A stretch of 64,000 bases of DNA. It comes from Morinoia aosen. Taxonomy: Eukaryota > Arthropoda > Malacostraca > Amphipoda > Talitridae. Position 1 is the first letter of the stretch. Each line of letters begins with the position of its first letter. A model generated the notes under the pieces. That model worked only from the letters and a program-made list of their open reading frames with translations. It made no database searches and was not told the origin of the DNA. A program made the position numbers and the translations under genes. The stretch is from the NCBI GenBank assembly GCA_030386875.1, contig CM059563.1, forward strand, positions 19,537,982-19,601,981, given 5' to 3'. Shown in pieces: positions 2,085-64,000 of this stretch.

Positions 2085-2750
2085 ATTTGTTATTTACATT
2101 GCTGAGTCACAGCGTAGCATGTATACACAACTGGTGACGCAGCTTGAAAATAACATCTCTTACGAATGCTTAAAATTGGTCATTTACGTTGCTCATTCAC
2201 CAGCGTAGCATGTACACACGACTCTTGACTCAACCTGAAAATAACATTTTTCTCATTCACCACCCCTCAGGGTGATACAACTATTGTATCTATGGGAATT
2301 AGCGCTTCCAGGGGGACAATGTGAGGACCCGAGCTAAAGGTTAGGTAGGCTTTCTTTTTGTTAAAATAACATAGGTTTTTGTTTTGTTACGGACCATCTT
2401 TTTTCGGTTCATTGCTGACCTGCTTTTCAGCACCTGCTACTTTCTTCTTCAACTTTGATCTTGTTTCATAAACTTCTTTCTCATCTTACTATTTCTGTGC
2501 TCTTTCTGCATAGATTCCACGTTCCCATAACTCCAAACTAAATGGTACCTTCTTCCTTCCTCTCTTTGGATCTCATTTGTTGAGGATTAGGAGGCTTAAA
2601 CTAACTAATAATCTAACCTGCTCATTCGCCAGCCTAGCATGTATACACAACTAGTGACGCTACTTGAAAATAACAACTTTCACCATTGCAGAAAGTTGGT
2701 GATTTACATTGTTGTGTCCTTCGTACCGCTGATACGCGACTAGTGACGCA
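2085..2750. repeat. About 90-bp tandem repeat interrupted by a family A insertion
   Basis: Landmark AGCATGTA recurs near 2117, 2207 and 2636, each followed by CACAAC or CACGAC and then GAAAATAACA. The third unit is split: its opening bases (CTCATTCACCA) stand at 2252-2262 and the unit resumes as CTCATTCGCCA at 2621. The 358 bp between are a family A element, which is therefore younger than this repeat. Confidence 0.75.
2263..2620 (+). mobile_element. Family A SINE-like element, full-length copy A1
   Basis: Begins CCCCTCAGGGTGATACAAC and ends with the family tail GGAGGCTTAAACTAAC plus a few A/T-rich bases. It is flanked by CTCATTCACCA (2252-2262) and CTCATTCGCCA (2621-2631), an 11-bp duplication with one mismatch. 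Because it interrupts a tandem repeat, part of that match could be repeat homology, but the reading frame of the repeat is resumed as expected for a duplication. It has no long open frame and no poly-A tail. Confidence 0.85.
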
Positions 2751-2751
2751 G

Positions 2752-3299
2752 TGGATAAATGATGGCCGTCACGAATACTAATCTCTTGAATAGCGACTCA
2801 CGGAATTGTGTCTGCATTGACGTGTAACTTGGAACGTTAGTGGCGACAAGCATGTGGTAATGATAGGTCTTCCTGCGGAATATTTATTCTGAAAATATTT
2901 ATACATAAGGAGCGTAAATTCCAGGTACGTTGGGCGATGCGAAGCTTTCGAATTATTCGTCAATTACTGCAACGTGTGTTTGGTCATTCGTCATGTGTTC
3001 ATTTGCATGCGATAGCCCACCTATCCACAGTCCATTGCCCTTGAGGTGCGCTGAGCTGAGCGTGAGAGAGATTGCGGAGATCAGTTCAACGAATTATTTG
3101 CTTGACATCCATTCGTTGAGAGCACAGTGAACGTTTTCATCTAATTACAGCAGTTACCTCGGCGTGATTTCAGTAAATATTTTCGTAATTTTTAAGTTCG
3201 CTCTCTGTTTTTTATCTCGAGCTATTGATCAAAACACCTGCAGCATGCATTCAGTCCCGAGGAGAAAGTTGAGTTTCTATTCATGAAATTAGATATTTT
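2752..3299. other. No gene seen; unique DNA
   Basis: No reading frame above 66 codons and no recognised repeat. A diverged family A fragment may begin somewhere in the last 60 bases. Confidence 0.5.
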
Positions 3300-3575
3300 T
3301 TGTGACGTACCGTATATTTTCAGTTCATTGCTGTTCTTTTTTCAGCACGTATTAATTTATTTTTCAACTTTTATCTTGCTTCATAAATTTTTTCACTCAT
3401 GTTGTCTTTATGCCCAGGGTGTGGGGACACATCTTGTGCACAGATTCCCCGTTTCCTCAATTCCAAGCAACAAAAATGTTTTTTCTCCCTTTCCATTCTT
3501 AGGAACGCCTTTGTTATGGTTAGGGGTTATGGTTAAGGGGTTATAACATTGCAGGAACCTGATGTGGATTTAAAT
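3300..3575 (+). mobile_element. Family A, diverged partial copy A2
   Basis: Recognised by family landmarks in order: TTCAGTTCATTGCTGTTC, TTTTTCAGCAC, TCAACTTTTATCTTG, CACATCTTGTGCACAGATTC and AGGAACGCCTTTGTTATGG. It carries the extra CCCAGGGTGTGGGGACAC block seen in only some copies. The 5' head is not recognisable. Confidence 0.6.
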
Positions 3576-6875: not shown

Positions 6876-7024
6876 CCTCTGAGAGCGCCAGTGCCCTCAG
6901 CGTAGGGTAAACAAACGTAACTAGACGAAGCCTATTGCCTATCCTATGCCCCTGAGGAGGGTTTGAAAATATCAAAATGTTAAAAAGGAAATACATTAGA
7001 ACTAAATTTAATGTAGCGATCGAC

Positions 7025-7070
<46 letters not shown>

Positions 7071-7259
7071 GTCATTCGCGATCGACGTGTATATATATAT
7101 ATATATATACGTCGATCGCTACATTAAATTTAGTTCTAATGTATTTCCTTTTTAACATTTTGATATTTTCAAACCCTCCTCAGGGGCATAGGATAGGCAA
7201 TAGGCTTCGTCTAGTTACGTTTGTTTACCCTACGCTGAGGGCACTGGCGCTCTCAGGGG
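6876..7259. repeat. Long hairpin: about 152-bp inverted repeat around an AT core
   Basis: The left arm (6876-7027) and right arm (7107-7259) are reverse complements with only a few differences. The core is two (TA)n runs separated by a short GTCATTCGCGATCGACG segment that itself repeats the arm ends. The right arm continues directly into a family A-like sequence, and the arms resemble the 5' part of another family A-like copy near 9000-9090. It looks like a foldback version of a dispersed element. No coding capacity. Confidence 0.9.
7028..7106. repeat. (TA)n microsatellites in the hairpin core
   Basis: Two alternating TA tracts at about 7028-7069 and 7091-7108 lie between the hairpin arms. 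The tracts are themselves self-complementary, so the structure could extrude as a cruciform. Confidence 0.9.
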
Positions 7260-7515
7260 CGATACAACTAGGTTACCTCGGCTGCAGAGAGGCCTTTGAA
7301 ACTTCTTTCTTCCGCGTTCAACTCATTTCATGCAGGGTCTATGATTTTCTCCTATGTTTTTTTTTGCCTTTTCTTCGTCTTTTCTTTTTCATCCTTTCAA
7401 ACTTAACGCACCTTGTGCATAGATTCATCCTATTTTGGAGTCGACTCTAATTGGTCCCTTCTCTTCATCTTTTTAAGAACGCTTGTGTTAAAACTCGGAG
7501 TTTAAAATTAGCAAT
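7252..7515 (+). mobile_element. Family A-like diverged copy A3
   Basis: Starts CTCAGGGGCGATACAACT, close to the family head. Further on it carries CACCTTGTGCATAGATTC and TTTTTAAGAACGC in the family order. The first part (TTACCTCGGCTG) matches the copy at 9000-9350 better than the main family, suggesting a separate subfamily. Confidence 0.55.
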
Positions 7516-13040: not shown

Positions 13041-13050
13041 GATCTTATGT

Positions 13051-13406
13051 TTCCCCTGAGGGGTATACATCTATTTTATCTGTCGTAATTAGCGCTCACA
13101 GGGAGTATATGTGATATCCCGAGCTCGAGGTTAGGTTAACCCTGCTTGTGATAAAATACAATAGGTTTTTTGTTTCGTTACGAACCATCTTTCATTGGTT
13201 CACTGCTGTCTTGTTTTTCAGCCCATACTACCGTCATCTTCAACTTTATTCATGTTTCATGAACTTATCTTCACCTTTGCCATTTTTATGCACCCCGTGT
13301 ATAGATTCTGCGTTCGCTCAAGTCCATACTAAATGGTGCTTTCCTCTCTTTAGAACGCCTTTGTTGCGGTTAAAGGAGGCTCAAACTAATTTCTAATCCA
13401 AATCTT
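13051..13406 (+). mobile_element. Family A full-length copy A5
   Basis: Head CCCCTGAGGGGTATACAT, then CGAGGTTAGGTTAAC, TTCACTGCTGTC, CGTGTATAGATTC and tail GGAGGCTCAAACTAAT. Flanked by GATCTTATGT at 13041-13050 and 13407-13416, a perfect 10-bp target-site duplication. More diverged inside than A8 or A14. Confidence 0.88.
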
Positions 13407-13416
13407 GATCTTATGT

Positions 13417-15425: not shown

Positions 15426-15735
15426 TTCTGCAAAAGATTCTCCTTGGGACATGTGAGGTCCCTACGTAAAAGTTAAGAACACTCTCCGTCTGTTGTAATA
15501 TAGAACAGTTTTTTTATTTAATAACGAATCATCGTTTTCCGATTCACTTTCGTATTTTCTTCATTACCTATCAATTTCAGCAATATTTTTTCGCTTCATA
15601 AACTATTTACATTTTTGCCGTCTCTATGCATAGATTCCTTTAATTTCATACTAGATGGGGCCTTTCCCCTTTCTCTGTTGATCACACCTTCGTCGGGTAA
15701 GTGAGACGTTAGCTATTCGATAATCGGACCTGCAT
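15426..15735 (+). mobile_element. Family A diverged copy A6
   Basis: Landmarks in order: GGGACATGTGAGGTCCC, AAAGTTAAGAACAC, CGATTCACTTTCG, CTATGCATAGATTCC and CATACTAGATGGGGCC. No duplications recognisable; an old copy. Confidence 0.6.
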
Positions 15736-17806: not shown

Positions 17807-17819
17807 ATTAAAATGGCTA

Positions 17820-18148
17820 CTCCTTACGTGGATACTACTATTGTATCTATAGGAATTGGCACTCCCAAGGGATAATGTGTGAGAGCCCGAGCTGAGAGTT
17901 AGGTAGGCCTTCTTTTTGTTGATATGTTTTTTTGTCATGTTATTGGTTCACTGCTTTCCTGTTTTTCAGCACCTTCTTCAACTTTCATGTTTTTTCATGA
18001 ACTTCTTTCTCAACTTACTGTTTCTATGCCCTTCTGCATGGATTCCGCATTCCCTTATCTCCATACTAAATGCCTTCCTCCTTCCTCTCTTCGATACGCT
18101 TTTTTAGTAGCGGTTAGGGATGCTTGAACTAACATATGATCTAATCGA
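17820..18148 (+). mobile_element. Family A full-length copy A7
   Basis: The head is altered (GTGGATACTACTATTGTATC) but aligns, followed by GAGCCCGAGCTGAGAGTTAG, TTCACTGCTTTCCTG and tail GGGATGCTTGAACTAAC. Flanks ATTAAAATGGCTA (17807-17819) and ATTACAATGGCTA (18149-18161) form a 13-bp duplication with one mismatch. It lies about 290 bp upstream of copy A8 in the same orientation. Confidence 0.87.
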
Positions 18149-18161
18149 ATTACAATGGCTA

Positions 18162-18426: not shown

Positions 18427-18440
18427 TGTTATATAATGAT

Positions 18441-18800
18441 CCCCTCAGGGGGATACAACTATTGTATCTATGGGAATTAGCGCTCCCAGGGGAAAAATGT
18501 GAGGGCCCGAGCTGAGAGTTAGGTAGGTTTTTTTTTGTTGAAATAAAATAGTTTTTGTTATGTTGAGGACCACCTTTTTTCGGTTCACTACTGTCCTGTT
18601 TTTCAGCACCTCTGACTTTCTTCTTCAACTTTTATCTTATTTCATGAACTTCTTTCTTATCTTACTGTTTCTATGCCCTTTCTGCATAGATTCCTCATTC
18701 ACTTATCTCCATACTAAATGGTGCCTTCCCCCTACCTCTTTTCGATACGCTCTTTTTTTATAGCGGTTAGGGAGGCTTAAACTAACTTATAATCTTAATC
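18441..18800 (+). mobile_element. Family A full-length reference copy A8
   Basis: This 360-bp copy best shows the family. Head CCCCTCAGGGGGATACAAC is followed by a GATACAA...TTGTATC palindrome, GGGAATTAGCGCTCCC, the GGGCCCGAGCTGAGAGTTAG segment, a T-rich stretch, CGGTTCACTACTGTCCTG, TCTTCTTCAACTTTTATCTT, TGCATAGATTCC and tail GGAGGCTTAAACTAAC. TGTTATATAATGAT flanks it perfectly (18427-18440 and 18801-18814). Duplications of this length fit LINE-mediated insertion. It lacks a poly-A tail, terminal inverted repeats and coding capacity. I do not know its ancestral RNA. Confidence 0.92.
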
Positions 18801-18814
18801 TGTTATATAATGAT

Positions 18815-20730: not shown

Positions 20731-21158
20731 ATTAGATCAAATAAGTGATCGAGTTTAAGCCTCCAGTTTCACCGCATTCGACCTAGGAAACTACCTAAGA
20801 CGCGATTTTCACCACATTCAACACCACTTCAAGAGTGTTCAAAAAAAAAAGAACAGCATCAGTTTGTTTGAGATTTGTGGAACTGGAAATTTATAGACAA
20901 GTTGTATTTCTCCATAAAATCCATTATACACAGAGACACTAAGTTAATAAGTATATGAAATAAGTAGAAGTTGGAAAAGAAAGTAGCAGTCACTGAAAAA
21001 CAGGATAGCGGTGAAACGGGAAAAGGTTCTCCGTAACAAAATAAAAACTTATTATATTACAGCAAAAAGAAAGCTAACCGAACATTCAGCTCGGACCTTT
21101 CATCATCCCCCTTATGGTGCAAAGTCCCATGGTTACAATAGTTGTGCCCCCTGAGAGG
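20731..21158 (-). mobile_element. Family A copy A9, minus strand, with internal divergence
   Basis: Read on the minus strand, the head CCTCTCAGGGGGCACAAC ends at 21158. The body (CTGTTTTTCAGTGACTGC, AACTTCTAC) follows and the tail complement GTTTAAGCCTCC lies at 20754-20765. The stretch between about 20766 and 20930 does not align well and may be replaced or inserted sequence. It stops 14 bp before the 35-bp array. Confidence 0.65.
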
Positions 21159-23892: not shown

Positions 23893-24390
23893 TAGGTCCC
23901 TACGTCGTGGGGATGCTGCTATTGTAGGTATGTCGCATTCGGCTCCCTTAGGGGGAGAGTGGGAAGAGAAAATCTTTCGGATGGTGGCGTGAACATACGA
24001 GGAAGAGAAAGAATGAGAACAAAAGACAGAAAATGTATTTTTTCAATAAAGGGCTTCTAATTTCTTTCCGTTTTGAACGGAAGGTTTGGGTTTTTATTAT
24101 TATTTCTCTCTTGTTCGGTAAAAATTAAAGGTATATGCTGTCCTAACTGCTATATTCCATTAGCGTTATTGTTATTCTACGTAGGTTTCTCCTTTCAAGA
24201 AGCACAAGATGGGATATAGGTTCAGGTTGGTCAAGTTTAGCTGTCGTATGATGAGGTGAACAAAATTCAATTCGCCTTGCACATAGATTCCCCGTTCCCT
24301 CAACTCAATATTGCATGAAGCCGTACTCCTTCTCTTAACCCTTTTGCTATGGTTAGAATGGCTTTAATCAGCTTGTTTCTAATCTAAGAT
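23893..24390 (+). mobile_element. Family A diverged copy A10
   Basis: Head CGTGGGGATGCTGCTATTGT and CTCCCTTAGGGGGA align with the family start. After a diverged interval, CCTTGCACATAGATTCCCCG and TTTTGCTATGGTTAG mark the 3' half, and it ends near TTTCTAATCTAAG. About 500 bp long, so probably carries internal insertion. It begins about 50 bp after the 52-bp array. Confidence 0.6.
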
Positions 24391-24479: not shown

Positions 24480-24735
24480 GAGACCAATTTTTTTTCAATT
24501 TTCATGCCATCTTCGCACTCTCATCTTCGTATTTTCTGTCTCTTCTTTCTTAACTTGTACTCCGCGCAGCGCATCTTGTATGGGATATACACATAGCGCA
24601 TCTTGTATGGGGTACACACATAGAGTTTGGAATATCCGTTTCATACAGTCCACACTAATTGGTACTTTCCTTCCGATTGCGTGAGATCGTTTTTTGGGGT
24701 TGTGGAGTTTTGAGCTAACTTATATAATCTGCTTC
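24480..24735 (+). mobile_element. Family A diverged 3' fragment A11
   Basis: GCGCATCTTGTATGGG occurs twice (near 24576 and 24597) at the place of the family CACCTTGTGCATAG block, followed by CACACTAATTGGTACTTTCC and TTTTGAGCTAACTTATATAA. The internal 25-bp duplication is specific to this copy. Confidence 0.5.
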
Positions 24736-26282: not shown

Positions 26283-26665
26283 TTATATACGTTTATTTAT
26301 TTTTGGGAATCCGTTTATTTTATCTGTGGGAATTAGCACCACTCCAGAAGGGAAGATGCGAGGTTTCGAGCTGGTGGGTAGTGGACCTTTTTTGTTGAAA
26401 TAAAATACGTTTTTCGTTCTGTTGCAATTTTTCTCTTCTTTCGAATCACTGGTGTCTTTTTCAGCCCCCATTACTTTCTTCTTCAATTTTTGTTTGTTTC
26501 ACTAATTTCCTTCAATATTGCTGTTTCAGTGAGCAGGACGTGAGAACACATTTTGTGCATAGATTCCTAGGACCTTTAACCTAATACTGTATGGAGCCTT
26601 GCTCTTTCCCTTAGCCCTTTTGTTACTGTTAGAGATTCTTAAATTAGCTAGTTTTTAATCTAATC
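26283..26665 (+). mobile_element. Family A diverged copy A12
   Basis: ATCTGTGGGAATTAGCACC, CGAGCTGGTGGGTAG, TTGTTGAAATAAAATACG, TTACTTTCTTCTTCAATTTT, TTTGTGCATAGATTCC and TTTTTAATCTAATCTAAG follow the family order. The first head hairpin is eroded. Confidence 0.7.
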
Positions 26666-27743: not shown

Positions 27744-27777
27744 AGTCTTGATTGAAATAAATGTACGAGGAGTTCGT

Positions 27778-27831
27778 GGACTCGAACTCAGGACTAGAGA
27801 TCACCGCGCCGACACGCTATTGACTGCGCTA
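27778..27831 (-). promoter_or_regulatory. Mirror-image pol III promoter in the left arm
   Basis: The exact complement of the right-arm promoter: box B complement GGACTCGAACT is at 27778-27788. Two identical promoters therefore diverge outward from the loop towards the element's ends. Confidence 0.7.
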
Positions 27832-28051
27832 TCGATCACCCTAAAAGGTGACCGAAGCACAACGAAAGCAATGTTTGGCACAGTGAAAGCAGGCGCACTG
27901 TCCTGACAGATATTGACTAGACTAGGGGGTGACTAGACTTTGAGCTCTCGATATAAAATGGGAATAAAAATATCTGTCAGGACAGTGCGCCTGCTTTCAC
28001 TGTGCCAAACATTGCTTTCGTTGTGCTTCGGTCACCTTTTAGGGTGATCGA

Positions 28052-28105
28052 TAGCGCAGTCAATAGCGTGTCGGCGCGGTGATCTCTAGTCCTGAGTTCG
28101 AGTCC
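28052..28105 (+). promoter_or_regulatory. Internal pol III promoter (box A and box B) of the SINE
   Basis: Box A-like TAGCGCAGTCAATAGCG lies at 28052-28068 and box B-like AGTTCGAGTCC at 28095-28105, about 27 bp apart as in tRNA genes. Box B differs from GGTTCGANTCC at one base. The T-arm stem does not pair well, so this is a SINE head rather than a working tRNA. Confidence 0.75.
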
Positions 28106-28210
28106 ACGAACTCCTCGTACATTTATTTCATTTGAAAAAACCTTGTGGAAGCAGTGTCTTCCCGTACCAGATTCTTCAATTGTTTCTGGGGGTGACTAGT
28201 CTTGATTGAA

Positions 28211-29186
28211 TTGCAATGAGAACTTAACGGCTTCTTTTTTTGTATCGTGTTCGTTTTACATCTATTTGATTCATGATGCAAAATCTGGTAACTCAGTGAG
28301 AGCTAACCATACGAACACTCCTCTCATTCTTCCTCAAATTTCCTCCCATCCAAAAAAATCAGTTGCAGCCTCCCCTAAAGTGCGTAATTATTGTAGCCAG
28401 GATACAGAAGGTCGGCGTCCATATTTAACGTCCTTTCGCCGGTCCGTGACCCGTGGCTTAACCAAAGCAAATAAGTTTACTGCTGCTGACTGAAGACAAA
28501 AGTGCTGCCTTAAGCAGACTCCGGGGGCTCAATGCCCTGCAAAAGCCTCTAAATGGGCGCGCTGTTGGGGGCACCTCGACTTACGGGAGTCAGTCACGCG
28601 AGCGCCTCCTCTCCCTTCCCACACCTTCTGCATACTACGTACGCAGCTCAGGACTGGCTTCTGTTGGCGCTTGTGTAGATCACGGGTATTTTCCGACTGA
28701 GATGCCTAGCTCGTTTATTGAATAAAGGTTAAATTAGGTTGAATAAATCATTTAGTTTATTGAGGTTATTTAGGGATGATTTTTCATAAGCTACTTTGGG
28801 TGTCATAGTGGGTTAATTGATATTTCTCGGCGTAAAATTATGTTTTAGATTGTTTTCAATAGTGTTATTTGATTTGAGTTTTTTGGGTACCAATGTTTTT
28901 ATAGTGACACTATTGCAAAAACGCAAGAAAATTACGGCGTCTCATGGAAAGATTCGAATATTACTTCGCCGAATATTCTGCTGCCGCGAGAGGAGACAAG
29001 GGATGTGAGTTGCCTAATGGCACAGCGTGGTGTTTAAGGTAACTGAAGGAGATGAAGCGTGGGGAACTCTCCTTTAGACAGATTTTGTGGGAAAATTGGA
29101 CTTTGAGATATTTAATGATATAAATTCAATTCTGATTTGAGGGGTGCGCAACACTTAGAGATGAGAGTAATAAATTGCTTATAAAA
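28211..29186. other. No gene seen
   Basis: Mixed unique sequence with a GC-richer patch at about 28490-28680. The 95-codon frame at 28206-28493 begins on the edge of the SINE duplication and carries no recognised domain. Confidence 0.45.
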
Positions 29187-29429
29187 TTTAGATGTTGACT
29201 TCAACACAGTTCCTGCGAAGTGACCCACCGGTGGTCACTTAGATGATTTTCATAGTGCTGCTGACCCACCTGCAGTCACTATCTCATTTTTTTATTAATA
29301 CTTAATGAAAGCTAAATAAAGGCGCGATCCAGTTAATATTTACTATTTTCAAAGTTGATCGCCACGATTGACTTTAAATTTGAATTGAATATTAAATTTC
29401 AATTTAATCCAATGCAATTAACGTGCTAA
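29187..29429 (+). mobile_element. Family B TTAA-type MITE, copy B1
   Basis: Alignable along its length with four other copies: GTGACCCACCGGTGGTCAC palindrome near the left end, TTTTCATAGTGCTGCTGACC, CGCGATCCAGTTAAT, and TTGAATATTAAATTTCAATT near the right end. Ends are eroded (TTAG left, CTAA right). About 240 bp, non-coding. Confidence 0.75.
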
Positions 29430-29976: not shown

Positions 29977-29989
29977 TCCTGTTACAAAG

Positions 29990-30343
29990 CCCCCTCAGGG
30001 GGATACAATTATTGTATCTATGGGAACTAGCGCTCCCAGGGGGACAATGTGAGGGCCCGAGCTAAAGGTTAGGTAGGCTTTCTTTTGTTAAAATAGAATA
30101 GGTTTTTGTTGTGTTACGGACCATCTTTTTTCGGTTCACTGCTGTCCTGTTTTTCACCGCCTACCACTTTCTTCTTCAACTTTTTCTTGTTTCATGAACT
30201 TCTTTCTTAGCTTTCTGTTTCTGTGCCCTTTCTGCATAGATTCCACGTTCCCTTAACTCCATACTAAATGGTGCCTTCTTCCTTCCTCTCTTTACATCTC
30301 ATTGTTGAGGATAGGGAGGCTTAAACTAACTAATAAACTAAAC
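29990..30343 (+). mobile_element. Family A full-length copy A14
   Basis: A 354-bp copy very close to A8 and A1, with head CCCCTCAGGGGGATACAAT, GGGCCCGAGCTAAAGGTTAG, CGGTTCACTGCTGTCCTG and tail GGAGGCTTAAACTAAC. TCCTGTTACAAAG flanks it exactly at 29977-29989 and 30344-30356. The intact duplication and low divergence mark one of the youngest copies here. Confidence 0.92.
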
Positions 30344-30356
30344 TCCTGTTACAAAG

Positions 30357-33100: not shown

Positions 33101-33101
33101 G

Positions 33102-33415
33102 TGATTGAGTATAAGTTAGTTTTAGCCTCCTCCACCAAGACATAGATGTTCGAAGGAAAGAAGAATGAATGTTCCTTTAAGTATGGACTTAGGGAACGCA
33201 TAATCTCTACACAAACTAGATTCCTGCACAGGATCCCATACGCATAGAAACAATAAGTTATGGAGGAAGGTTATTAAAGAAGCTAAAACTTGAAGAAGAA
33301 AGTCAAAGTTGCTGAAAAACAGGACAGCAGTAAACCGAAAGAAAGATGGTCCTTAACAAATCAAAAAACATTTTATTTCAACCAAAAAAAGGCATGCTTA
33401 ACTCTCATCTCAGGT
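33102..33415 (-). mobile_element. Family A copy A15, minus strand
   Basis: On the minus strand the tail complement TAAGTTAGTTTTAGCCTCCT is at the left end, then TTTAAGTATGGACTTAGGGA, AACTTGAAGAAGAAAGT, GCTGAAAAACAGGACAGCAG and GATGGTCCTTAACAAA follow in exact reverse family order. The 5' head is missing or diverged beyond about 33415. Confidence 0.75.
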
Positions 33416-33844
33416 TCAACTTTCAAGACTAGGCATGTCGTTGCATTTTTGTACAATGTTTCAAAGTTTTTTGCAAGAAAATGAACTACGCAAAGGTTCA
33501 CCTTATATGAACAGCACAGGAACCTGTGTTGCACCTGTGACATCATGAAATATTCAAATTTGTAATAAATTGAAATGAATGTTTGTAGGGAAAACTTTCG
33601 GAGGTTTTAGTCAACGACGTTGAGTAGTTTTTTGAGACAAAGATGGATTTTTGCTGGTCCCAGTTATAGTTCGCTCGAGTACTTTGCATGGACAGAAAAG
33701 TTGATTCAGAAGAAGGGCTTAGAGTGAAGGTTGCCTTCCTACTGTAAATGAACGGGTGTAAGTGATGTTCTTACGGAAGAAAATGCCATAGATTACTGTA
33801 AATCGAGGCGACTTGTGTCTGCAAGCGGCATACAGGGCTATAAT
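33416..33844. other. No gene seen
   Basis: Unique sequence without a supported feature. Confidence 0.5.
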
Positions 33845-39658: not shown

Positions 39659-39885
39659 TTAACACGCTGATTGCGATGGGTTAAACTGAAGTTCGATATT
39701 CAACTCAAATTTAACTTCAACTGCAGTGTGTAATATTGAAAACAGCACGTATTAACTGGAAAATGCCTTCATCTAGTTTCAAGTACAATATTGGTGAAAA
39801 TATGAATTTGTGACTACTGGTCGGTCAGCAGCACTTATAAGTCCCCTCCGTGTGCGTCGGCGGTTCACACCACGACTTACGCGTT
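39659..39885 (-). mobile_element. Family B TTAA-type MITE, copy B2, minus strand
   Basis: Begins TTAACACGCTGATTGCGATG and continues GGGTTAAACTGAAG and GATATTCAACTCAAATTTAA, the reverse of the family right end. Further on are GTGACTACTGGTCGGTCAGC and CACTTATAAGTCCC. The far end is diverged. It faces copy B3 in inverted orientation about 65 bp away. Confidence 0.7.
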
Positions 39886-39949
39886 TTTACACATCGTCGC
39901 ATGATATGACCTCCGCACATGCATGTGTAACTCCGAAAAATGCTAAATT

Positions 39950-40177
39950 TTAACGCTTTGACTGCAACGTGCGCCACCTGTGACCACGAAAGGGATTTTC
40001 ATAGTTCTGCTGACCGACCAGTAGTCACAAACCCAATTTTCATAAATACTTAGTTAAAGCAGAGTGAAAGCACGGTCCAGTTAATGTTTGCTGCTTGCAA
40101 AATTGCTAACTACATTTAACTTCAATTTCGAGTTGAATATTAAACTTCAGCTTAACCAATTGCGTTCAAAGTGTCAA
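39950..40177 (+). mobile_element. Family B TTAA-type MITE, copy B3
   Basis: TTAACGCTTTGACTGCAACG at the left end mirrors CGTTCAAAGTGTCAA at the right end, a terminal inverted repeat of about 16 bp. In between are CCACCTGTGACC, TTTTCATAGTTCTGCTGACC, GCACGGTCCAGTTAATG and GAGTTGAATATTAAACTTCA. Left TTAA and right TCAA look like a TTAA duplication with one mutated base. 228 bp, non-coding. Confidence 0.8.
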
Positions 40178-40979
40178 TGGAAACAGTTAACTGTCTTTTT
40201 AAGAATTTTATTGTTCACGGGTGTGAAAAGTTACCGTGAGCTTCAATTTTTGACGCCGTGTGAGCCACATTCGCAGCCTTCCAATCTCTAAAAATCGTTT
40301 TGGCGCGGCTTGCTTCTGGCAACTTTGTCCTCATCATCATCTGTGTGAGTGATGATGGCAGCAGAGCATGATGTAGAGTGATGAGATGCAGTGAGCAGCC
40401 CGAGTGTTACGGTGAGGGAAGTAAGTCAACCAAAAATCTATTTTAAAGTGTCTTTAATGACGCACAAGAAACATTGTTCAAGTGGCGTACAAGAAACAGT
40501 ATCAGGGGGAAATACTACATGTTACAGTCGCGGTGTGTATTGACGTTTCCCTTTTTTTCCAAGGCGGGTGGATTGCCAGAAAGGATTAAGTAATATAAGA
40601 GCAGGGAGTAGAAAACTTGCCCTTGTAATATCTGGAAACCCTACTTTCCCGTATTTTCTATTCGCTAGAGGAGCTGCTTTAATCATGGTAAAAACTGCAG
40701 TTTCAGAACTGGAATCGAATCAGGATTTTAATCAGGATCTTTCTTGCCAAGTTGAGAGCTTAATTTTCGTGCCATCGGAAAAAAAATTCTCCAAAAAGTA
40801 GGTTATCTGGTAATATTTTGAACTGGATGTGAAGTTCTGTGTTAGTAAATGCAATTATCGGGACCCCAAAGTGTATGTATGACATCGCTTTTCTCTCGGT
40901 TGTTGGTAGGGTTGTGTCACACTTAAATGGTGTGTATAATAAAACTGAAAATATCTAAATATCACAGGGAAGTAGGATG
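40178..40979. other. No gene seen
   Basis: Unique sequence. A 77-codon frame at 40568-40801 has no recognisable domain. Confidence 0.45.
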
Positions 40980-43134: not shown

Positions 43135-46100
43135 TGCGAGGGGTGCGATGAGGGGTGCGATGAGGAGTGCGATGAGGGGTACGATGAGGGGTGCGATGAG
43201 GGGTGCGATGAGGGGTACGATGAGGGGTGTGATGAGGGGTACGATGAGGTGTACGATGAGGGGTGCGATGAGGGGTGCGATGAGGGGTGCGATGAGGGGT
43301 GCAATGAGGGGTTCGATGAGGGGTGCGATGAGGAGTGCGATGAGGTGTACGATGAGGGGTGCGATGAGGGGTGCGATGAGGGGTACGATGAGGGGTGTGA
43401 TGAGGGGTACGATGAGGTGTACGATGAGGGGTGCGATGAGGGGTGCGATGAGGGGTGCAATGAGGGGTTCGATGAGGGGTGCGATGAGGGGTGCGATGAG
43501 GGGTACGATGAGGGGGGCGATGAGGTGTACGATGAGGTGTACGATGAGGAGTGCGATGAAGAGTGCGATGAGGGGTGCAATGAGGGGTACGATGAGGGGT
43601 ACGATGAGGGGTACGATGAGGGGTACGATGAGGGGTGCGATGAGGTGTACGATGAGGTGTACGATGAGGAGTGCGATGAAGAGTGCGATGAGGGGTGCAA
43701 TGAGGGGTACGATGAGGGGTACGATGATGGGTACGATGAGGGGTACGATGAGGGGTACGATGAGGGGTACGATGAGGGGTGCAATGAGGGGTACGATGAG
43801 GGGTACGATGAGGTGTACGATGAGGAGTGCGATGAAGAGTGCGATGAGGGGTGCAATGAGGGGTACGATGAGGGGTACGATGATGGGTACGATGAGGGGT
43901 ACGATGAGGGGTACGATGAGGGGTGCGATGAGGTGTACGATGAGGTGTACGATGAGGTGTACGATGAGGGGTGCGATGAGGGGTGCGATGAGGGGTGCGA
44001 TGAGGGGTGCGATGAGGTGTACGATGAGGGGTGCGATGAGGGGTACGATGAGGTGTACGATGAGGTGTACGATGAGGGGTGCGATGAGGGGTGCGATGAG
44101 GGGTGCGATGAGGGGTACGATGAGGTGTACGATGAGGTGTACGATGAGGGGTGCGATGAGGGGTGCGATGAGGGGTGCGATGAGGGGTGCGATGAGGTGT
44201 ACGATGAGGGGTGCGATGAGGGGTGCGATGAGGGGTGCGATGAGGGGTACGATGAGGTGTACGATGAGGTGTACGATGAGGGGTGCGATGAGGGGTGCGA
44301 TGAGGGGTGCGATGAGGGGTGCGATGAGGTGTACGATGAGGGGTGCGATGAGGGGTGCGATGAGGTGTACGATGAGGTGTACGATGAGGGGTGCGATGAG
44401 GGGTGCGATGAGGTGTACGATGAGGGGTGCGATGAGGGGTGCGATGAGGGGTGCGATGAGGGGTGCGATGAGGTGTACGATGAGGGGTGCGATGAGGGGT
44501 ACGATGAGGTGTACGATGAGGTGTACGATGAGGGGTACGATGAGGTGTACGATGAGGGGTGCGATGAGGGGTGCGATGAGGTGTACGATGAGGGGTGCGA
44601 TGAGGCGTGCGATGAGGGGTGCGATGAGGGGTACGATGAGGTGTACGATGAGGGGTGCGATGAGGGGTACGATGAGGTGTACGATGAGGTGTACGATGAG
44701 GGGTGCGATGAGGGGTACGATGAGGTGTACGATGAGGTGTACGATGAGGGGTACGATGAGGTGTACGATGAGGGGTGCGATGAGAGGTGCGATGAGGGGT
44801 ACGATGAGGTGTACGATGAGGTGTACGATGAGGGGTACGATGAGGTGTACGATGAGGGGTGCGATGAGAGGTGCGATGAGGGGTACGATGAGGTGTACGA
44901 TGAGGTGTACGATGAGGGGTACGATGAGGTGTACGATGAGGGGTGCGATGAGGGGTGCGATGAGGTGTACGATGAGGTGTACGATGAGGGGTGCGATGAG
45001 GGGTGCGATGAGGTGTACGATGAGGGGTGCGATGAGGGGTGCGATGAGGGGTGCGATGAGGGGTACGATGAGGTGTACGATGAGGGGTGCGATGAAGGGT
45101 ACGATGAGGTGTACGATGAGGTGTACGATGAGGTGTACGATGAGGGGTGCGATGAGGGGTACGATGAGGTGTACGATGAGGTGTACGATGAGGGGTACGA
45201 TGAGGTGTACGATGAGGGGTGCGATGAGAGGTGCGATGAGGGGTACGATGAGGTGTACGATGAGGTGTACGATGAGGGGTACGATGAGGTGTACGATGAG
45301 GGGTGCGATGAGAGGTGCGATGAGGGGTACGATGAGGTGTACGATGAGGTGTACGATGAGGGGTGCGATGAGGGGTACGATGAGGGGTGCGATGAGAGGT
45401 GCGATGAGGGGTACGATGAGGTGTACGATGAGGTGTACGATGAGGGGTGCGATGAGGTGTACGATGAGGTGTACGATGAGGAGTGCGATGAGGGGTGCAA
45501 TGAGGGGTACGATGAGGGGTACGATGATGGGTACGATGATGGGTACGATGAGGGGTACGATGAGGTGTACGATGAGGTGTACGATGAGGGGTACGATGAG
45601 GGGTACGATGAGGTGTACGATGAGGTGTACGATGAGGGGTACGATGAGGTGTACGATGAGGGGTACGATGAGGGGTACGATGAGGTGTACGATGAGGGGT
45701 GCGATGAGAGGTGCGATGAGGGGTACGATGAGGTGTACGATGAGGTGTACGATGAGGGGTGCGATGAGGTGTACGATGAGGTGTACGATGAAGAGTGCGA
45801 TGAGGGGTGCAATGAGGGGTACGATGAGGGTTACGATGATGGGTACGATGAGGGGTACGATGAGGTGTACGATGAGGTGTACGATGAGGGGTACGATGAG
45901 GGGTACGATGAGGTGTACGATGAGGTGTACGATGAGGGGTACGATGAGGGGTACGATGAGGTGTACGATGAGGTGTACGATGAGGGGTGCGATGAGAGGT
46001 GCGATGAGGGGTACGATGAGGTGTACGATGAGGTGTACGATGAGGGGTGCGATGAGGGGTACGATGAGGTGTACGATGAGGGGTGCGATGAGAGGTGCGA

Positions 46101-48272
46101 TGAGGGGTACGATGAGGTGTACGATGAGGGGTGCGATGAGAGGTGCGATGAGGTGTACGATGAGGTGTACGATGAGGGGTGCGATGAGAGGTGCGATGAG
46201 GGGTACGATGAGGTGTACGATGAGGGGTACGATGAGAGGTGCGATGAGAGGTGCGATGAGGGGTACGATGAGGTGTACGATGAGGTGTACGATGAGGGGT
46301 GCGATGAGAGGTGCGATGAGGGGTACGATGAGGTGTACGATGAGGGGTACGATGAGGTGTACGATGAGGGGTACGATGAGGGGTGCGATGAGAGGTGCGA
46401 TGAGGGGTACGATGAGGGGTACGATGAGGTGTACGATGAGGGGTACGATGAGGGGTACGATGAGGTGTACGATGAGGTGTACGATGAGGGGTACGATGAG
46501 GGGTGCGATGAGAGGTGCGATGAGGGGTACGATGAGGTGTACGATGAGGGGTACGATGAGGTGTACGATGAGGGGTGCGATGAGAGGTGCGATGAGGGGT
46601 ACGATGAGGTGTACGATGAGGTGTACGATGAGGGGTACGATGAGGTGTACGATGAGGGGTGCGATGAGGTGTACGATGAGGTGTACGATGAGGGGTGCGA
46701 TGAGAGGTGCGATGAGGGGTACGATGAGGTGTACGATGAGGTGTACGATGAGGGGTGCGATGAGGTGTACGATGAGGTGTACGATGAGGAGTGCGATGAG
46801 GGGTGCAATGAGGGGTACGATGAGGGGTACGATGATGGGTACGATGAGGGGTACGATGAGGGGTACGATGAGGGGTGCGATGAGGGGTGCGATGAGGGGT
46901 GCGATGAGGGGTGCGATGAGGGGTGCGATGAGGGGTGCGATGAGGGGTGCGATGAGGGGTGCGATGAGGGGTGCGATGAGGGGTGCGATGAGGTGTACGA
47001 CGAGGTGTACGACGAGGGGTGCGATGAGGTGTACGACGAGGGGTGCGATGAGGTGTACGACGAGGGGTGCGATGAGGTGTACGACGAGGGGTGCGATGAG
47101 GGGTCCGATGAGGGGTGCGATGAGGTGTACGACGAGGGGTGCGATGAGGTGTACGACGAGGGGTGCGATGAAGTGTACGACGAGGGGTGCGATGAGGTGT
47201 ACGACGAGGGGTGCGATGAGGGGTGCGATGAGGGGTGCGATGAGGTGTACGACGAGGGGTGCGATGAGGTGTACGACGAGGGGTGCGATGAGGTGTACGA
47301 CGAGGGGTGCGATGAGGTGTACGACGAGGGGTGCGATGAGGTGTACGACGAGGGGTGCGATGAGGTGTACGACGAGGGGTGCGATGAGGTGTACGACGAG
47401 GGGTGCGATGAGGTGTACGACGAGGGGTGCGATGAGGTGTACGACGAGGGGTGCGATGAGGTGTACGACGAGGGGTGCGATGAGGTGTACGACGAGGGGT
47501 GCGATGAGGGGTCCGATGAGGGGTGCGATGAGGTGTACGACGAGGGGTGCGATGAGGTGTACGACGAGGGGTGCGATGAGGTGTACGACGAGGGGTGCGA
47601 TGAGGTGTACGACGAGGGGTGCGATGAGGTGTACGACGAGGGGTGCGATGAGGTGTACGACGAGGGGTGCGATGAGGGGTCCGATGAGGGGTGCGATGAG
47701 GGGTGCGATGAGGGGTGCGATGAGGTGTACGATGAATGGTGCGATGAAGGGTGCGATGAGGGGTACGATGAGGGGTGCGATGAGGGGTCCGATGAGGGGT
47801 GCGATGAGGGGTCCGATTAGGGGTGCGATGAGGGGTACGATGAGGGGTGCGATGAGGGGTACGATGAGGGGTGCGATGAGGTGTACGATGAATGGTGCGA
47901 TGAAGGGTGCGATGAGGGGTACGATGAGGGGTGCGATGAGGGGTGCGATGAGGGGTGCGATGAGGGGTGCGATGAGGGGTGCGATGAGGGGTGCGATGAG
48001 GTGTACGGTGAGGGGTGCGATGAGGGGTACGATGAGGTGTACGATGAATGGTGCGATGAAGGGTGCGATGAGGGGTACGATGAGGGGTGCGATGAGGGGT
48101 GCGATGAGGTGTACGACGAGGGGTGCGACGAGGGGTACGATGAGGGGTACGATTAGGTGTACGACGAGGGGTGCGATGAGGGGTGCGATGAGGGGTCCGA
48201 TGAGGGGTGCGATGAGGGGTGCGATGAGGGGTGCGATGAGGGGTGCGATGAGGGGTGCGATGAGGGGTGCGA
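43135..48272. repeat. 5.1-kb satellite-like array of a 12-bp unit, about 428 copies
   Basis: Units are GATGAGGGGTGC, GATGAGGGGTAC, GATGAGGTGTAC and rarer forms (GAGAGGTGC, GAGGAGTGC, GATGGGTAC, GAATGGTGC, GAGGGGTCC). Length is strictly conserved at 12. Higher-order blocks exist: a seven-unit 84-bp period around 44770-45330, a recurring motif with GAAGAGTGC and GGGTGCAATGAG at about 43560, 43680, 43830, 45480, 45790 and 46800, and a 24-bp dimer domain at 46990-47690. Frames of 1,827, 1,571 and 1,726 codons stay open on both strands because no phase contains a stop. Variation hits all codon positions alike, so I do not call a protein. Confidence 0.96.
46990..47690. repeat. 24-bp dimer sub-domain within the 12-bp array
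   Basis: Here the pattern is mainly GTGTACGACGAGGGGTGC plus GATGAG, with GACGAG replacing GATGAG after each GTGTAC. The GAC variant is almost absent elsewhere in the array apart from a few units near 48110-48170, so this domain was amplified as a dimer. Confidence 0.88.
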
Positions 48273-48675
48273 TGATGGAGAAACAGCAACAATCATTGCG
48301 ATATTCCCATTTTACACTCGTTTAATCAAGGCTTCATAAACGCTTGAAGAGATTTTTCATCGGTATAATCTCGTTTAAAACCGTTTCATGCTTCCGTTTT
48401 TCCATCCTTTTCCTGTTATTGTTGTAATAATAATGCTACGAGAAAGCCTTCAATTACATGAGTCCTGTAATACAGTAATTATTTCCGTGATTTTCCTCAC
48501 TGCTATTTATTTGTTTTCAGCTCACGGTATCTTTAAACTCGAAGCATCCTCAGGTGACATCGAGCTACGAAATCTGCTTGCTTCTCCGCTGTCTGTTCTT
48601 CTGGCTGATAATTTTTTTGAATTTATATTTACAAGATTACACGTTCTCTGTACTACGTTATTCTCACATGAACAA
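48273..48675. other. No gene seen
   Basis: Unique AT-leaning sequence between two arrays. The 118-codon frame at 48388-48744 runs into the 23-bp repeat and has hydrophobic stretches but no recognised family. Confidence 0.4.
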
Positions 48676-53408: not shown

Positions 53409-53861
53409 ACCGTATGCTCGTATAGCAGGTTTCTTTGTTCTGTGTTCAACAAGCACTTGTGTTAGGCGTGTGTATAACAGGGGCGGCTGTTAGACTTGTG
53501 TATAAATGATGCCTCCCATAGATATGTTTTAAAAACGCCTTTATTTGCCCTTTTATAAGATTTTTTCTACCTCGCCTGTGCGTGGCAGGTGTATTCGGCC
53601 TATGTATAACACATTTAAGGTAGGTTGCCACCACCGATGCTAACATTCTTACTGATCTACGGAATGCTTGTGATGAACAGGACACGAATCAATCAGAGCT
53701 TCTCTCAGACCCTTCGTTGTCGTGCGTGTAAAAAAGCGACGCATGCCTGTGCTACTGCCGTTGCTGTTTTGATCAGGGCGAGCAGGTTGGAATTTTAGGT
53801 CAAAATTTTTAAAACTGTTTTTTTATATTTTTGGCTGAACGCTTCAGATAGCAAATTTTCT
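53409..53861. other. No gene seen
   Basis: Unique sequence. A 79-codon minus frame (53446-53685) has no recognised domain. GTGTATAACAG/GTGTATAAATGA/TGTATAACAC words recur. Confidence 0.4.
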
Positions 53862-54088
53862 CCAACACTTTAACTGCGGCAGGTAAAACTGAAGATTAAT
53901 GTTCTACTCGAATTTATACCCGTTTGTGGTAGACGACGTTGAAAATAAACATTAACTTGATCATGTCCTCACCCATAGCTGTGACTAAGTGTTCATGAAT
54001 GTTGAGTTTGTAACTAATGATCGGTCAGTAGCTTTATGAAAACTCCCTCAGTGACCACCGGTGGCTCATGTTGCAGTCAAAGTGTCAA
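53862..54088 (-). mobile_element. Family B TTAA-type MITE, copy B4, minus strand
   Basis: Ends CACTTTAACTGCGGC (left) and TTGCAGTCAAAGTG (right) are inverted repeats. The TTAA target is degraded to CCAA and TCAA. Internal markers in reverse order: GAGTTTGTAACTAATGATCG, GTCAGTAGCTTTATGAAAAC and GTGACCACCGGTGGCTCA, the last a near-perfect palindrome. 227 bp, non-coding. Confidence 0.8.
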
Positions 54089-54339
54089 GGAATGGCCATT
54101 TTGAATTACTCCTGATAACTAAATTTTGGTTCAAACAGTGCTGACTCAGGCAACTTTGGTCAATAAAAATATCAGTCTGGCCACTCATATTCTAGTAATG
54201 ATCTCAAATGGGGACCGAGGGATGCGACGGGTGACACGTTCGCTATAAAACACGACCGCGCGATACAACTTCGACAAAATTTCTCAATTGAGACCCGTAT
54301 TTAGGATAGTATATTCCTTCCCCGTAATTTTTTGTGCCT
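54089..54339. other. No gene seen
   Basis: Unique sequence without a supported feature. Confidence 0.5.
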
Positions 54340-58695: not shown

Positions 58696-60335
58696 AACAC
58701 TGACTTCTTACTTGACGCGTTCCTGATGAATTTTTGATACCGCTTCTAAGCGCCGAACTTTTCCAGAACACTTTGTAGATCTTAGCGTGCAACAACTCGT
58801 GAAGATCCTTAAATGCTTTTAGAATGCCTTTGTCCGTCGTAAAATGTGTGTGAAACTCTTTGTTATGAGTTGCGCGAGGGATGAGGGTTGAATGAGGGAA
58901 ACGAAAGGGGTGTGAGGGGAGTTATGTGCGGGGTCGGGTGAGGGTTGAGGCTAGAAGAGGCATATTGATGAGAAAAGTTGGGAAGCCGGAGCCTGATAAA
59001 ATCATATAAATTTATTTAGCTTCACAAAGTCCGCGGCAAAATGCGCATAACGGAAACTTTTTGGGGTAAAGCGCTTGTTGGCTTCGCGATATTTTCTCCC
59101 TCGTGAGCAAGTGGGCGGGCTGCTGGAGCAAGAAAATTGCGTTCCTGCATGTCAGTGCTACGAAAACGGCCAGCGTAAATTAACAGTTGTAGAATATATA
59201 CCAACTTGCTATTGACACAATCGACGTATCGCTAGATTTTCGATATAGCAGAGGCCATCGGCGCCTCAAACAAGTAAACTTAATAGGAATAGACAAACTC
59301 TTGTTTTTTTTGCTTTCTTGTCACGAAGGTATCGTCACTCCTCAATGCCATCACCCTAAATTATTCCATTTAGCGGTGATTATTGGCGTAAGGTGATATT
59401 GATGTGCTTATATGGGCGGTAATAATGTAGTGGGATTCTTGCATGTTCTGATTTGCGTTGTCGGGATACAAAATATTAGCTCGTTCATTTTTTACGAACG
59501 TGTAATTGTTTCATCAAAATACGGACTGCTGACCCACGTTTTGCTGTGAAATGAATAACTATTGCATCCAGATTGTGGACGTCTGTGTCATGTGCGATAA
59601 ACCTCTTGCACTAAAAATATCATTTACAAATATTACCATTTTATCTCAAAGAGTGAATGTAATCCCTTCGAAACTATAATTAAAAGCTTTGTCTGTGCAT
59701 GATCCCCTCATCTATATCATACCTAGGTTTCATTTGGCTATGAAGATTCCTGAAATAGAACGCCATTACTATCTGCGTTTTGTCAATGCACTTTAGGAAT
59801 GGTCAACTCGGACCATTTTACTGCTTTTGTACCCTTCTAGTTTCAGTGAGGCTTCTCACATCAGGGCTGCTGATGCGTATGCGTGTGACCAAGAATTTCG
59901 TGTATTTAAGTCCGTTTTAATGCAGCAGTATTTTTATCGACACCGCCCGTACGCTGACGTGCGCAATGTTGAACAAGCTGTTATTACGTTGAGAATCCTC
60001 GCACTTTGAATTGAGAGTCAATGACTGTTAGTCTCTCCATTTGAGAATCCTTCTTAGAATCCTAAACTTATTTCTAGAATCTGGAACCTGGGATCCTCGT
60101 TGCCAACTTGGATTGTGAAATAGGTACTGTAAATGAGCGTGCGTACCTGGAAATACAATGTCATCATCTCTGCATTCATTTCGTAGCATTTTAATTCAGT
60201 GAAAATAAGGAAAAGGGAGCAGGAGAATGTCCTCAGTGAGGCATACTTACTTTTCGAGTACGCGATAAGTTTTCCAATATTTTCCCCCATTTTGACTCAA
60301 TCGCACAAAACCAGTTAAAATTTAAGGTCTTTAAT
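58696..60335. other. No gene seen; longest featureless stretch on the right
   Basis: Unique mixed sequence, with a GAGGG-rich patch at 58868-58940. Frames are 60-78 codons without motifs. Confidence 0.45.
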
Positions 60336-60565
60336 TTAGCATTTTGACTGAGACTTCACCCAACAGTGGTCACTGAAGCAGTTTTCATAATGCAGTAGAC
60401 CGATTAGCAGTCGCTGACTTAATTTTCAGAAACTAACCTAATAAAAACCAAACGAAGGCACGATCTATACTTAATGTCTGTTTTTTTTAAATTGATCTCT
60501 AAAATTATCTCTTATTTGAGTCGAATATTGAACTTCGGTTAAACCCGCCGCAGTTAATGGGTTAA
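60336..60565 (+). mobile_element. Family B TTAA-type MITE, copy B5
   Basis: Left TTAGCATTTTGACTGAGAC and right CCGCAGTTAATGGGTTAA are imperfect inverted repeats ending in TTAG and TTAA. Internal landmarks in family order: CAGTGGTCACTGAAGC, TTTTCATAATGCAGTAGACC, GGCACGATCTATACTTAATG and GTCGAATATTGAACTTCGG. About 230 bp. Confidence 0.8.
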
Positions 60566-61591: not shown

Positions 61592-61965
61592 TCCCCCTGA
61601 GAGCATGTAAGTGTTTCTCTGGAAATTAGCGCTTCTCATAGCAATATACGAGTATAAGGTCCCAAGTTTAGCGTTGAATAGACCTTCTTTTCGATAAATG
61701 CAATCTTTATTTACTTCGTTGAATACCATCATTTTCCGGTTCACGGCTGTCCTGCCTTTAAAGCACGTCCAACTTTCTTTTTCGACTTTTATTTTGTTTG
61801 CTAACCTTCCATCTCAACTTGCTGTTGCTGTGCGCAAGGGGTCCTTTGCGGGAACACACCTTGTGCATTGATTCCGCCTTCACTCAATTCCATACTAAAT
61901 GGGCCCCCATCCTTCTTCTCTTTGTACTTCTTAGTTATGCTAGAGGAGGCTCATAATCATTTCTC
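61592..61965 (+). mobile_element. Family A copy A16 (longer subtype)
   Basis: Head TCCCCCTGAGAGCATG, AAATTAGCGCTTCTCA, CCGGTTCACGGCTGTCCTG, GCAAGGGGTCCTTTGCGGGA, ACACACCTTGTGCATTGATT and CATACTAAATGGGCCC follow the family order. It has the extra block before the TGCATNGATT motif found in A2 and A4. No clear duplications. Confidence 0.78.
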
Positions 61966-62110
61966 TTTTTTCGTATTATGTTCCATGCTCTCATTTTTAT
62001 CTCTCCCATTTTCCCTCCTCCAGCTTTCCCTCCCCCCTCCAGCTTTCCCTCCCCCCTTCTATTTCCCTCCCCCTTTCCCCTCCCCCCCCCCCCCCCCCCG
62101 AGGGCCCACC
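61966..62110. repeat. C-rich tract with a poly-C run
   Basis: CCCTCCCCCCTCCAGCTTT-type words, then a nearly pure C run at about 62076-62099. On the minus strand this is a G run with clear quadruplex potential. Confidence 0.92.
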
Positions 62111-62775: not shown

Positions 62776-62904
62776 TTCTTCTGCAGATCCTGCTTTCTCT
62801 TCTTCTCTACCAATTCTACTCTGTGCCTGCTCACCATACCTTTTACCGTGTTCTCATTATTTCTCCCCCCCATGGAAGTACAACCATCGTAATTATGTGA
62901 ATTA

Positions 62905-63100
62905 CCGGTAACACGAGGAATACTTGAGGTCTCTAGCTAAAGCTTAGATAGGCTTTCTTTTTGTTGAAATAAATAGGTTTTTTATTAAGTTAACGACAAT
63001 CTTTTTCGATTCACTGTTGTCTTTTTTTCACGAACCACTGCATTCCTCTTCTAGTTTTATCTTGTTTCATGAAATTTTTCTCACCTGTCCGACCTCATGA
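62905..63100 (+). mobile_element. Family A copy A17, cut off by the terminal array
   Basis: GAGGTCTCTAGCTAAAGCTT, AGATAGGCTTTCTTTTTGTT, GATTCACTGTTGTC and TTTATCTTGTTTCATGAAAT follow the family order. The copy stops near 63100, where the 20-bp array begins in place of its 3' half. The head hairpins are missing. Confidence 0.78.
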
Positions 63101-63104
63101 TTTT

Positions 63105-64000
63105 TAGCCCTCCCTACCCTCCCCTATCCCTCCCTACCCTCCCCTATCCCTCCCTACCCTCCCCTATCCCTCCCTACCCTCCCCTATCCCTCCCTACCCT
63201 CCCCTATCCCTCCCTACCCTCCCCTATCCCTCCCTACCCTCCCCTATCCCTTCCTACCCTCTCCTATCCCTCCCTACCCTCCCCTATCCCTCCCTACCCT
63301 CCCCTATCCCTCCCTACCCTCCCCTATCCCTTCCTACCCTCCCCTATCCCTTCCTACCCTCCCCTATCCCTCCCTACCCTCCCCTATCCCTCCCTACCCT
63401 CCCCTATCCCTCCCTACCCTCCCCTATCCCTCCCTACCCTCCCCTATCCCTCCCTACCCTCCCCTATCCCTCCCTACCCTCCCCTATCCCTTCCTACCCT
63501 CCCCTATCCCTCCCTATCCTCCCCTATGCCTCCCTACCCTCCCCTATCCCTCCCTACCCTCCCCTATCCCTCCCTACCCTCCCCTATCCCTCCCTACCCT
63601 CCCCTATCCCTCCCTATCCTCCCCTATCCCTCCCTATCCTCCCCTATCCCTCCCTATCCTTCACTATCCCTCCCTATCCTTCACTATCCTTCACTATCCC
63701 TCCCTATCCTTCACTATCCCTCCCTATCCTCCCCTATCCCTCCCTACCCTCTCCTATCCCTCCCTACCCTCCCCTATCCCTCCCTACCCTCCCCTATCCC
63801 TCCCTACCCTCCCCCTATCCCTTCCTACCCTCCCCTATCCCTCCCTACCCTCCCCTATCCCTCCCTACCCTCTCCTATCCCTTCCTACCCTCCCCTATCC
63901 CTCCCTATCCTCCCCTATCCCTCCCTATCCTTCACTATCCCTCCCTATCCTTCACTATCCCTCCCTACCCTCCCCTATCCCTCCCTACCCTCCCCTATCC
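63105..64000. repeat. 20-bp C-rich tandem array, about 45 copies, open at the window end
   Basis: Unit CCTCCCTACCCTCCCCTATC in tight register. Variants change CCC to TCC or CTCCCC to TTCAC in the stretch 63600-63720 and again at 63915-63960, a block duplication. The minus strand has G3-G4 runs every 4-6 bases and should form G-quadruplexes. The array continues beyond 64000. It is not a canonical TTAGGG or TTAGG telomere repeat. Confidence 0.96.

What the first reader, a model, noticed from the sequence alone, without database searches (positions are those of the whole stretch)
18427..18814. Dispersed SINE-like family with intact target-site duplications and unknown ancestry (family A)
Seventeen full or partial copies lie in 64 kb. 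Five have recognisable duplications: TGTTATATAATGAT (18427/18801), TCCTGTTACAAAG (29977/30344), GATCTTATGT (13041/13407), a 13-bp pair with one mismatch (17807/18149) and an 11-bp pair with one mismatch (2252/2621). The boundaries CCCCTCAGGGGG...GGAGGCTTAAACTAAC are consistent. There is no poly-A tail, no inverted termini, no coding capacity, and no tRNA, 5S or 7SL head that I can recognise. Variable 10-14-bp duplications are what LINE-mediated insertion produces (established); that family A uses a partner LINE with a matching 3' end is inference.
Basis: partly seen in the sequence, partly recalled or inferred. Interest (0 to 1): 0.75.

Follow-up and report, generated by a model that had tools for sequence, protein, structure and literature searches.

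The report
Short copied element without usual promoter
A roughly 350-base non-coding element has been copied many times through this stretch of animal-like DNA, apparently by borrowing the copying machinery of larger retrotransposons, but no trace of the promoter that normally drives such short elements was found; it is a plausible new family of a kind already known.

Summary
The observation largely holds. One copy finds 13 other stretches (nhmmer). A family profile gives 15 hits with E<0.001 and none in the reversed window: about 15 copies, not 17. All five reported duplications are real: scores 8-14, against at most 7 in 42 mismatched pairings. One copy sits in a ~90-bp tandem array that shows the unfilled site. 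Correction: the element runs 13-16 bases past the stated ...CTAAC end, with a TAATAATCTAATC-like tail before the duplication.

LINE-mediated insertion is well supported; "SINE" in the strict sense is not. No tRNA or Rfam head and no A/B boxes above chance. All 12 good copies carry a T4+ run at consensus 89-118, which should stop Pol III. The runs are no more frequent than the T-rich make-up predicts, and the argument depends on orientation.

Best reading: a non-autonomous, probably Pol II-transcribed LINE parasite that works like a SIDE (cf. Persaeus), with a head of unknown origin. Partner LINE and host were not testable: no genome is held, and no Dfam/Repbase tool was on hand.

The parts
18427..18440 (+). 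5' target-site duplication TGTTATATAATGAT
   Evidence: score 14
18441..18800 (+). full-length copy (the reported one), 360 bp including tail TTATAATCTTAATC
18801..18814 (+). 3' target-site duplication TGTTATATAATGAT
29977..29989 (+). 5' duplication TCCTGTTACAAAG (one extra C before the element)
29991..30343 (+). full-length copy with tail TAATAAACTAAAC
30344..30356 (+). 3' duplication TCCTGTTACAAAG
2252..2262 (+). 5' duplication CTCATTCACCA
2263..2620 (+). full-length copy inserted in a ~90-bp tandem array that continues beyond it
2621..2631 (+). 3' duplication CTCATTCGCCA (one mismatch)
17807..17819 (+). 5' duplication ATTAAAATGGCTA
17820..18148 (+). full-length copy with internal deletions
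18149..18161 (+). 3' duplication ATTACAATGGCTA (one mismatch)
13041..13050 (+). 5' duplication GATCTTATGT (two extra T before the element)
13053..13406 (+). full-length copy, more diverged
13407..13416 (+). 3' duplication GATCTTATGT
15439..15729 (+). copy lacking most of the head; candidate 11-bp duplication CTGCAAAAGAT/CTGCATAAGAT abuts both ends
   Evidence: 22 of 4000 random pairs reach this score under the abutting rule; chosen from ten entries
26298..26662 (+). older copy, no clear duplication
33101..33417 (-). older copy without the first ~62 positions
20806..21158 (-). older copy, reaches profile position 339
61593..61974 (+). older copy carrying the extra 24 bases
62866..63106 (+). copy of profile positions 1-240; a minisatellite follows at 63108
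3241..3548 (+). older copy without the first ~50 positions
24263..24376 (+). 3' fragment (profile 242-348)
   Evidence: E=2.4e-13
24630..24724 (+). 3' fragment (profile 253-349)
   Evidence: E=4.2e-4
7392..7490 (+). decayed copy (profile 221-321); head-like CTCTCAGGGGCGATACAACTA upstream near 7250, seen by eye
   Evidence: E=1.2e-4; sequence printed

Best explanation
Family A is a non-autonomous retroposon of about 355 bp that is copied through RNA by a LINE-type (non-LTR) reverse transcriptase. SHOWN: consistent ends; a short TAATAATCTAATC-like 3' tail; variable 10-14-bp target-site duplications on five copies; a paralogous empty site for one; subfamilies of different age; no known RNA-gene head; no Pol III boxes above chance; T4+ runs inside all 12 good copies. 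INFERRED: full-length RNA is made by Pol II, because Pol III should stop within about 120 bases. A partner LINE recognises the 3' end and primes reverse transcription at a nicked target. The most likely origin is an internally deleted LINE (a SIDE: 5' and 3' LINE ends joined), which would supply both promoter and 3' recognition site. The LINE-mobilised, non-Pol III part is the firmer claim (about 0.75); the SIDE origin is weaker (about 0.5).
For: Copies and the reversed-window control. Duplications against mismatched pairings and under a masked, abutting rule (8 in 22 and 10 in 4 of 4000 random pairs). Paralogous empty site at 2263. Tail before the duplication in the five copies. No tRNA and no Rfam family at threshold; the 17 relaxed hits lie in palindromic stretches outside the family, and copy 29991 alone gave two chance-level hits, E 4.2 and 8.8. 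A/B-box pairs are matched by 13-60 of 60 shuffles. T4+ runs at consensus 89-118 in 12 of 12 copies, five T or longer in 11 of 12, and another T4+ run at 158-162 in 11 of 12. Pol III commonly stops at four or more T; in B2 tests one T more than TTTT gave nearly 100% termination (PMC8466645, passages). Precedent: Persaeus, 263-317 bp in the table rows seen, no RNA-gene head, no Pol III promoter (PMC6740152, passages, Discussion). Subfamily split 19:1:0.
Against: No partner LINE was seen. 5' truncation, a usual mark of LINE copying, is weak: five hits keep the 3' end but lack about 50 or more 5' positions, one does the reverse; divergence could mimic this, and only 15439 has a candidate duplication. 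In one search, 9 of 10 entries lack one above background. T4+ runs are not enriched: in all 12 copies 35-194 of 200 shuffles have as many, so they follow from T-richness and are not a conserved signal in themselves. On the opposite strand there are only 0-2 such runs per copy, none in 4 of 12, so if the element were read the other way the terminator argument would mostly fall; A/B boxes are at chance there too. Persaeus has a poly-A tail, unlike family A. Pol II transcription is inferred, not shown.
Confidence: 0.68

Rival explanations
1. A true SINE whose Pol III promoter has diverged beyond recognition, lies upstream (type 3-like), or is on the other strand, with a LINE-derived 3' end.
For: Size, duplications, and a central segment more conserved than the rest: seven older copies match the young consensus at 77-80% over positions 121-200, against 58-74% in other segments. 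A weak B-box-like GGTTCACTGCT at position 144. Few T4+ runs on the opposite strand.
Against: A/B pairs do not exceed shuffles on either strand. T4+ runs before position 120 in 12 of 12 copies in the preferred orientation. No Rfam or tRNA match. T-rich make-up (140 of 355 consensus bases) may inflate the apparent central conservation.
Confidence: 0.2
2. Retrocopies of one unknown host non-coding RNA gene, not a self-sustaining element lineage.
For: A consistent 5' end (alignment) and no recognised RNA-gene head are compatible with copies of an undescribed RNA.
Against: Subfamilies with shared diagnostic changes (19:1:0) and a shared internal length difference point to changing source copies. 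No poly-A tail. No stable RNA fold was found: 8 heads gave z from -0.65 to 0.87, and RNAalifold gave 0 pairs on the gapped 12-copy alignment (an insensitive test).
Confidence: 0.08
3. A DNA transposon relic (MITE, Mutator-like) or a solo LTR.
For: Dispersed, apparently non-coding, with consistent ends.
Against: The first and last bases are not inverted repeats (best 3-5 of 10 matches in five copies). Duplications vary from 10 to 14 bp. The tail varies between copies.
Confidence: 0.03

Closest known systems
Persaeus, a SIDE (short internally deleted element) from the CR1 LINE Zenon in Lepidoptera (PMC6740152; passages, Discussion)
   Same: About the same size (263-317 bp in the rows seen), no tRNA/5S/7SL head, no Pol III promoter, dispersed, non-autonomous.
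   Different: Persaeus has a poly-A tail and ends that match Zenon. Family A has a TAATC-like tail, and no LINE match could be tested.
BuceSINE and ManaSINE2 (GC-rich heads of unknown origin on bipartite RTE sequences, birds; PMC4844689 legend seen, PMC7245038 Discussion)
   Same: A head of unknown origin, richer in GC than the body (here 51% in the first 90 bases against 33-42% in the other segments).
   Different: Theirs carry recognisable AviRTE 5' and 3' UTR pieces; family A's head is only mildly GC-rich and its body T-rich and unmatched.
Pol III SINEs with tRNA, 5S, 7SL or snRNA heads (PMC7245038, passages)
   Same: Size, dispersal, target-site duplications.
   Different: No such head, no A/B boxes, and internal T-runs in the preferred orientation.
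Maque of Anopheles gambiae (recalled only; the 12 papers listed included none about it by title)
   Same: As recalled, a very short retroposon with duplications and no clear Pol III promoter.
   Different: No sequence comparison was possible.

Membership tests
SINE (strict, Pol III-transcribed) | head derived from tRNA, 5S, 7SL or snRNA | tested here: not met
   ARAGORN 0 genes; Rfam 0 at gathering threshold, none in the family at E<=1, two chance-level matches at E 4.2 and 8.8 for copy 29991
SINE (strict, Pol III-transcribed) | internal A and B boxes | tested here: not met
   best A+B scores 11-13 of 17; 13-60 of 60 shuffles reach them, both strands, 6 copies plus consensus
SINE (strict, Pol III-transcribed) | no Pol III terminator ahead of the 3' end | tested here: not met
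   T4+ runs at consensus 89-118 in 12 of 12 copies, at the frequency expected from composition; holds for the preferred orientation only
LINE-mobilised retroposon | variable-length target-site duplications abutting the ends | tested here: met
   five copies, 10-14 bp; most other copies lack a clear one
LINE-mobilised retroposon | short 3' tail before the 3' duplication | tested here: met
   13-16-base TAATAATCTAATC-like tails in five copies
LINE-mobilised retroposon | 5'-truncated copies | tested here: inconclusive
   5 hits 3'-anchored, 1 5'-anchored; one with a candidate duplication
SIDE (internally deleted LINE) | 5' and 3' ends homologous to a LINE of the same genome | not testable with these tools
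   no host genome; no RT or endonuclease among 105 window ORFs
SIDE (internally deleted LINE) | no RNA-gene head and no Pol III promoter | tested here: met
MITE / DNA transposon | terminal inverted repeats and fixed duplication length | tested here: not met
   end match 3-5 of 10 in five copies; duplications 10-14 bp

The most novel reading that the evidence does not exclude
Family A is a long-lived class of short retroposon with a non-Pol III promoter head unrelated to any known RNA gene and a conserved T-rich central domain, which amplified through several subfamilies without the Pol III system that SINEs depend on.
Probability: 0.2. Interest if true: 0.6.

Novelty: new member of a known kind. 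Interest (0 to 1): 0.35.

Why it matters
Successful short retroposons are usually explained by Pol III promoters, and LINE-derived SIDEs are described as rare (PMC6740152). A dense family (about 15 copies in 64 kb), with copies 9-34% diverged from the consensus and lacking Pol III signals, would be a good test of how such parasites are transcribed and how they recruit a LINE.

Tried and rejected
Own-genome search: no genome is held. Collection scans: 2 scans of viral contigs and 2 of genome contigs, 0 matches; these collections are viral and prokaryotic, so this says little. Phage records: no match. Six k-mers of the element in the paper library: 0 papers. Literature searches: one search gave nothing useful and no paper; some searches gave the papers cited. 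Host: CpG observed/expected is 0.98 outside tandem arrays, which suggests a lineage with little CpG methylation such as an arthropod; this is inference, and no species was identified.

RNA structure or ribozyme at the 5' end: 8 heads folded no better than shuffles (z -0.65 to 0.87), RNAalifold gave 0 pairs on 12 copies, and Rfam found no ribozyme. Rejected as unsupported. An inverted repeat CTATGC...GCATAG around the variable 24-base stretch was seen by eye in young copies but not tested. T-runs as a conserved signal: rejected, since shuffles have as many; only their presence is used. Reverse orientation was considered and not preferred, because of the tail and the 3'-anchored fragments. Partner LINE in the window: Pfam on 10 ORFs gave one match below its cut-off, and on 105 of the 183 ORFs of the filtered list gave four families, one ORF each, E 0.004-0.007; I take these as chance.

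Full report
WHAT IS THERE. The copy at 18441 found 14 nhmmer matches (itself included) with E<0.01 in the window. The iterated profile found 15 with E<1e-3, 12 of them below 1e-50, and none in the reversed window at E<=10 (the 12 best built the profile). The copies lie on both strands. The five best-preserved copies are 329-360 bp with tail. No Pfam family at E<=0.01 explains the ORFs tested, beyond four weak single matches.

INSERTION MARKS. All five reported duplications are real (scores 8-14; 42 mismatched pairings gave 3-7). Unmasked random pairs reach 8 in 71 of 3000 and 14 in 27 of 3000, probably through tandem arrays. With arrays masked and both ends required to abut, 8 is reached in 22 and 10 in 4 of 4000. 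Copy 2263 sits in a ~90-bp tandem array whose units are seen on both sides and show the site unfilled; about 30 bases of array sequence are also missing on the 5' side, at an unknown time. A sixth, head-less copy at 15439-15729 has a candidate 11-bp duplication with one mismatch. It was picked from ten entries, so its weight is modest; the other nine scored at background.

HISTORY. Twelve copies are 66-91% identical to their consensus. Four young copies split into 18441+17820 and 29991+2263 at 19 sites, against 1 and 0 for the alternative groupings. Five of seven older copies carry 17 or 24 bases that the five best-preserved copies lack. Older copies match the young consensus best at positions 121-200 (77-80%, against 58-74% in other segments); T-rich sequence may explain part of this.

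WHY IT IS NOT A STANDARD SINE. No tRNA gene and no Rfam family at the curated threshold; relaxed searches gave only hits outside the family or at chance level. A/B-box pairs do not exceed 60 shuffles in six copies and the consensus on either strand. All 12 good copies have a T4+ run at consensus 89-118, 11 of them five T or longer, and 11 of 12 have another at 158-162. Pol III commonly stops at four or more T (PMC8466645, passages), so a full-length Pol III transcript is unlikely. That orientation is supported by the tail and by five 3'-anchored hits against one 5'-anchored hit.

MECHANISM. The most likely picture is a Pol II transcript (inferred), 3'-end recognition by a LINE protein (inferred), nicking and target-primed reverse transcription with a 10-14-bp duplication (supported by the marks). 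The nearest described kind is the SIDE: Persaeus is 263-317 bp in the table rows seen, has no RNA-gene head and no Pol III promoter, and carries LINE ends (PMC6740152). Bird SINEs with GC-rich heads of unknown origin are another precedent (PMC4844689 legend; PMC7245038 Discussion). Whether family A's ends match a LINE is untested, so it is not filed as a SIDE, only said to work like one.

NOVELTY. The family was not found in the collections scanned or in text. None of these is a repeat database and no host genome was available, so novelty at family level is likely but unproven. As a kind it is known.

Noticed in passing
43139-48275: A 5.1-kb G-rich array built on 12-bp units (GGGGTACGATGA-like) keeps frames of 1571-1830 codons open, two on each strand; it accounts for the extreme GC skew of 44-48 kb.
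   Followed up: no
27753-28130 and 6876-7259: Two near-perfect palindromes with arms of 162 nt (100%) and 170 nt (99%); they could be recent inverted duplications or an assembly artefact.
   Followed up: no
29182-29373, 39659-40196, 53846-54114, 60316-60563: A second dispersed family, partly self-inverted at 39659-40177, looking like a fold-back or MITE-type element.
   Followed up: no
whole window: Tandem repeats mask 18,973 of 64,000 bases, and CpG observed/expected of the rest is 0.98: minisatellite-rich, apparently unmethylated eukaryote DNA.
   Followed up: partly
consensus positions 78 and 322 of family A: The motif GTTAGG(T/G)AGGCTT occurs near both ends of the consensus; it is weak in older copies and may be chance.
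   Followed up: partly
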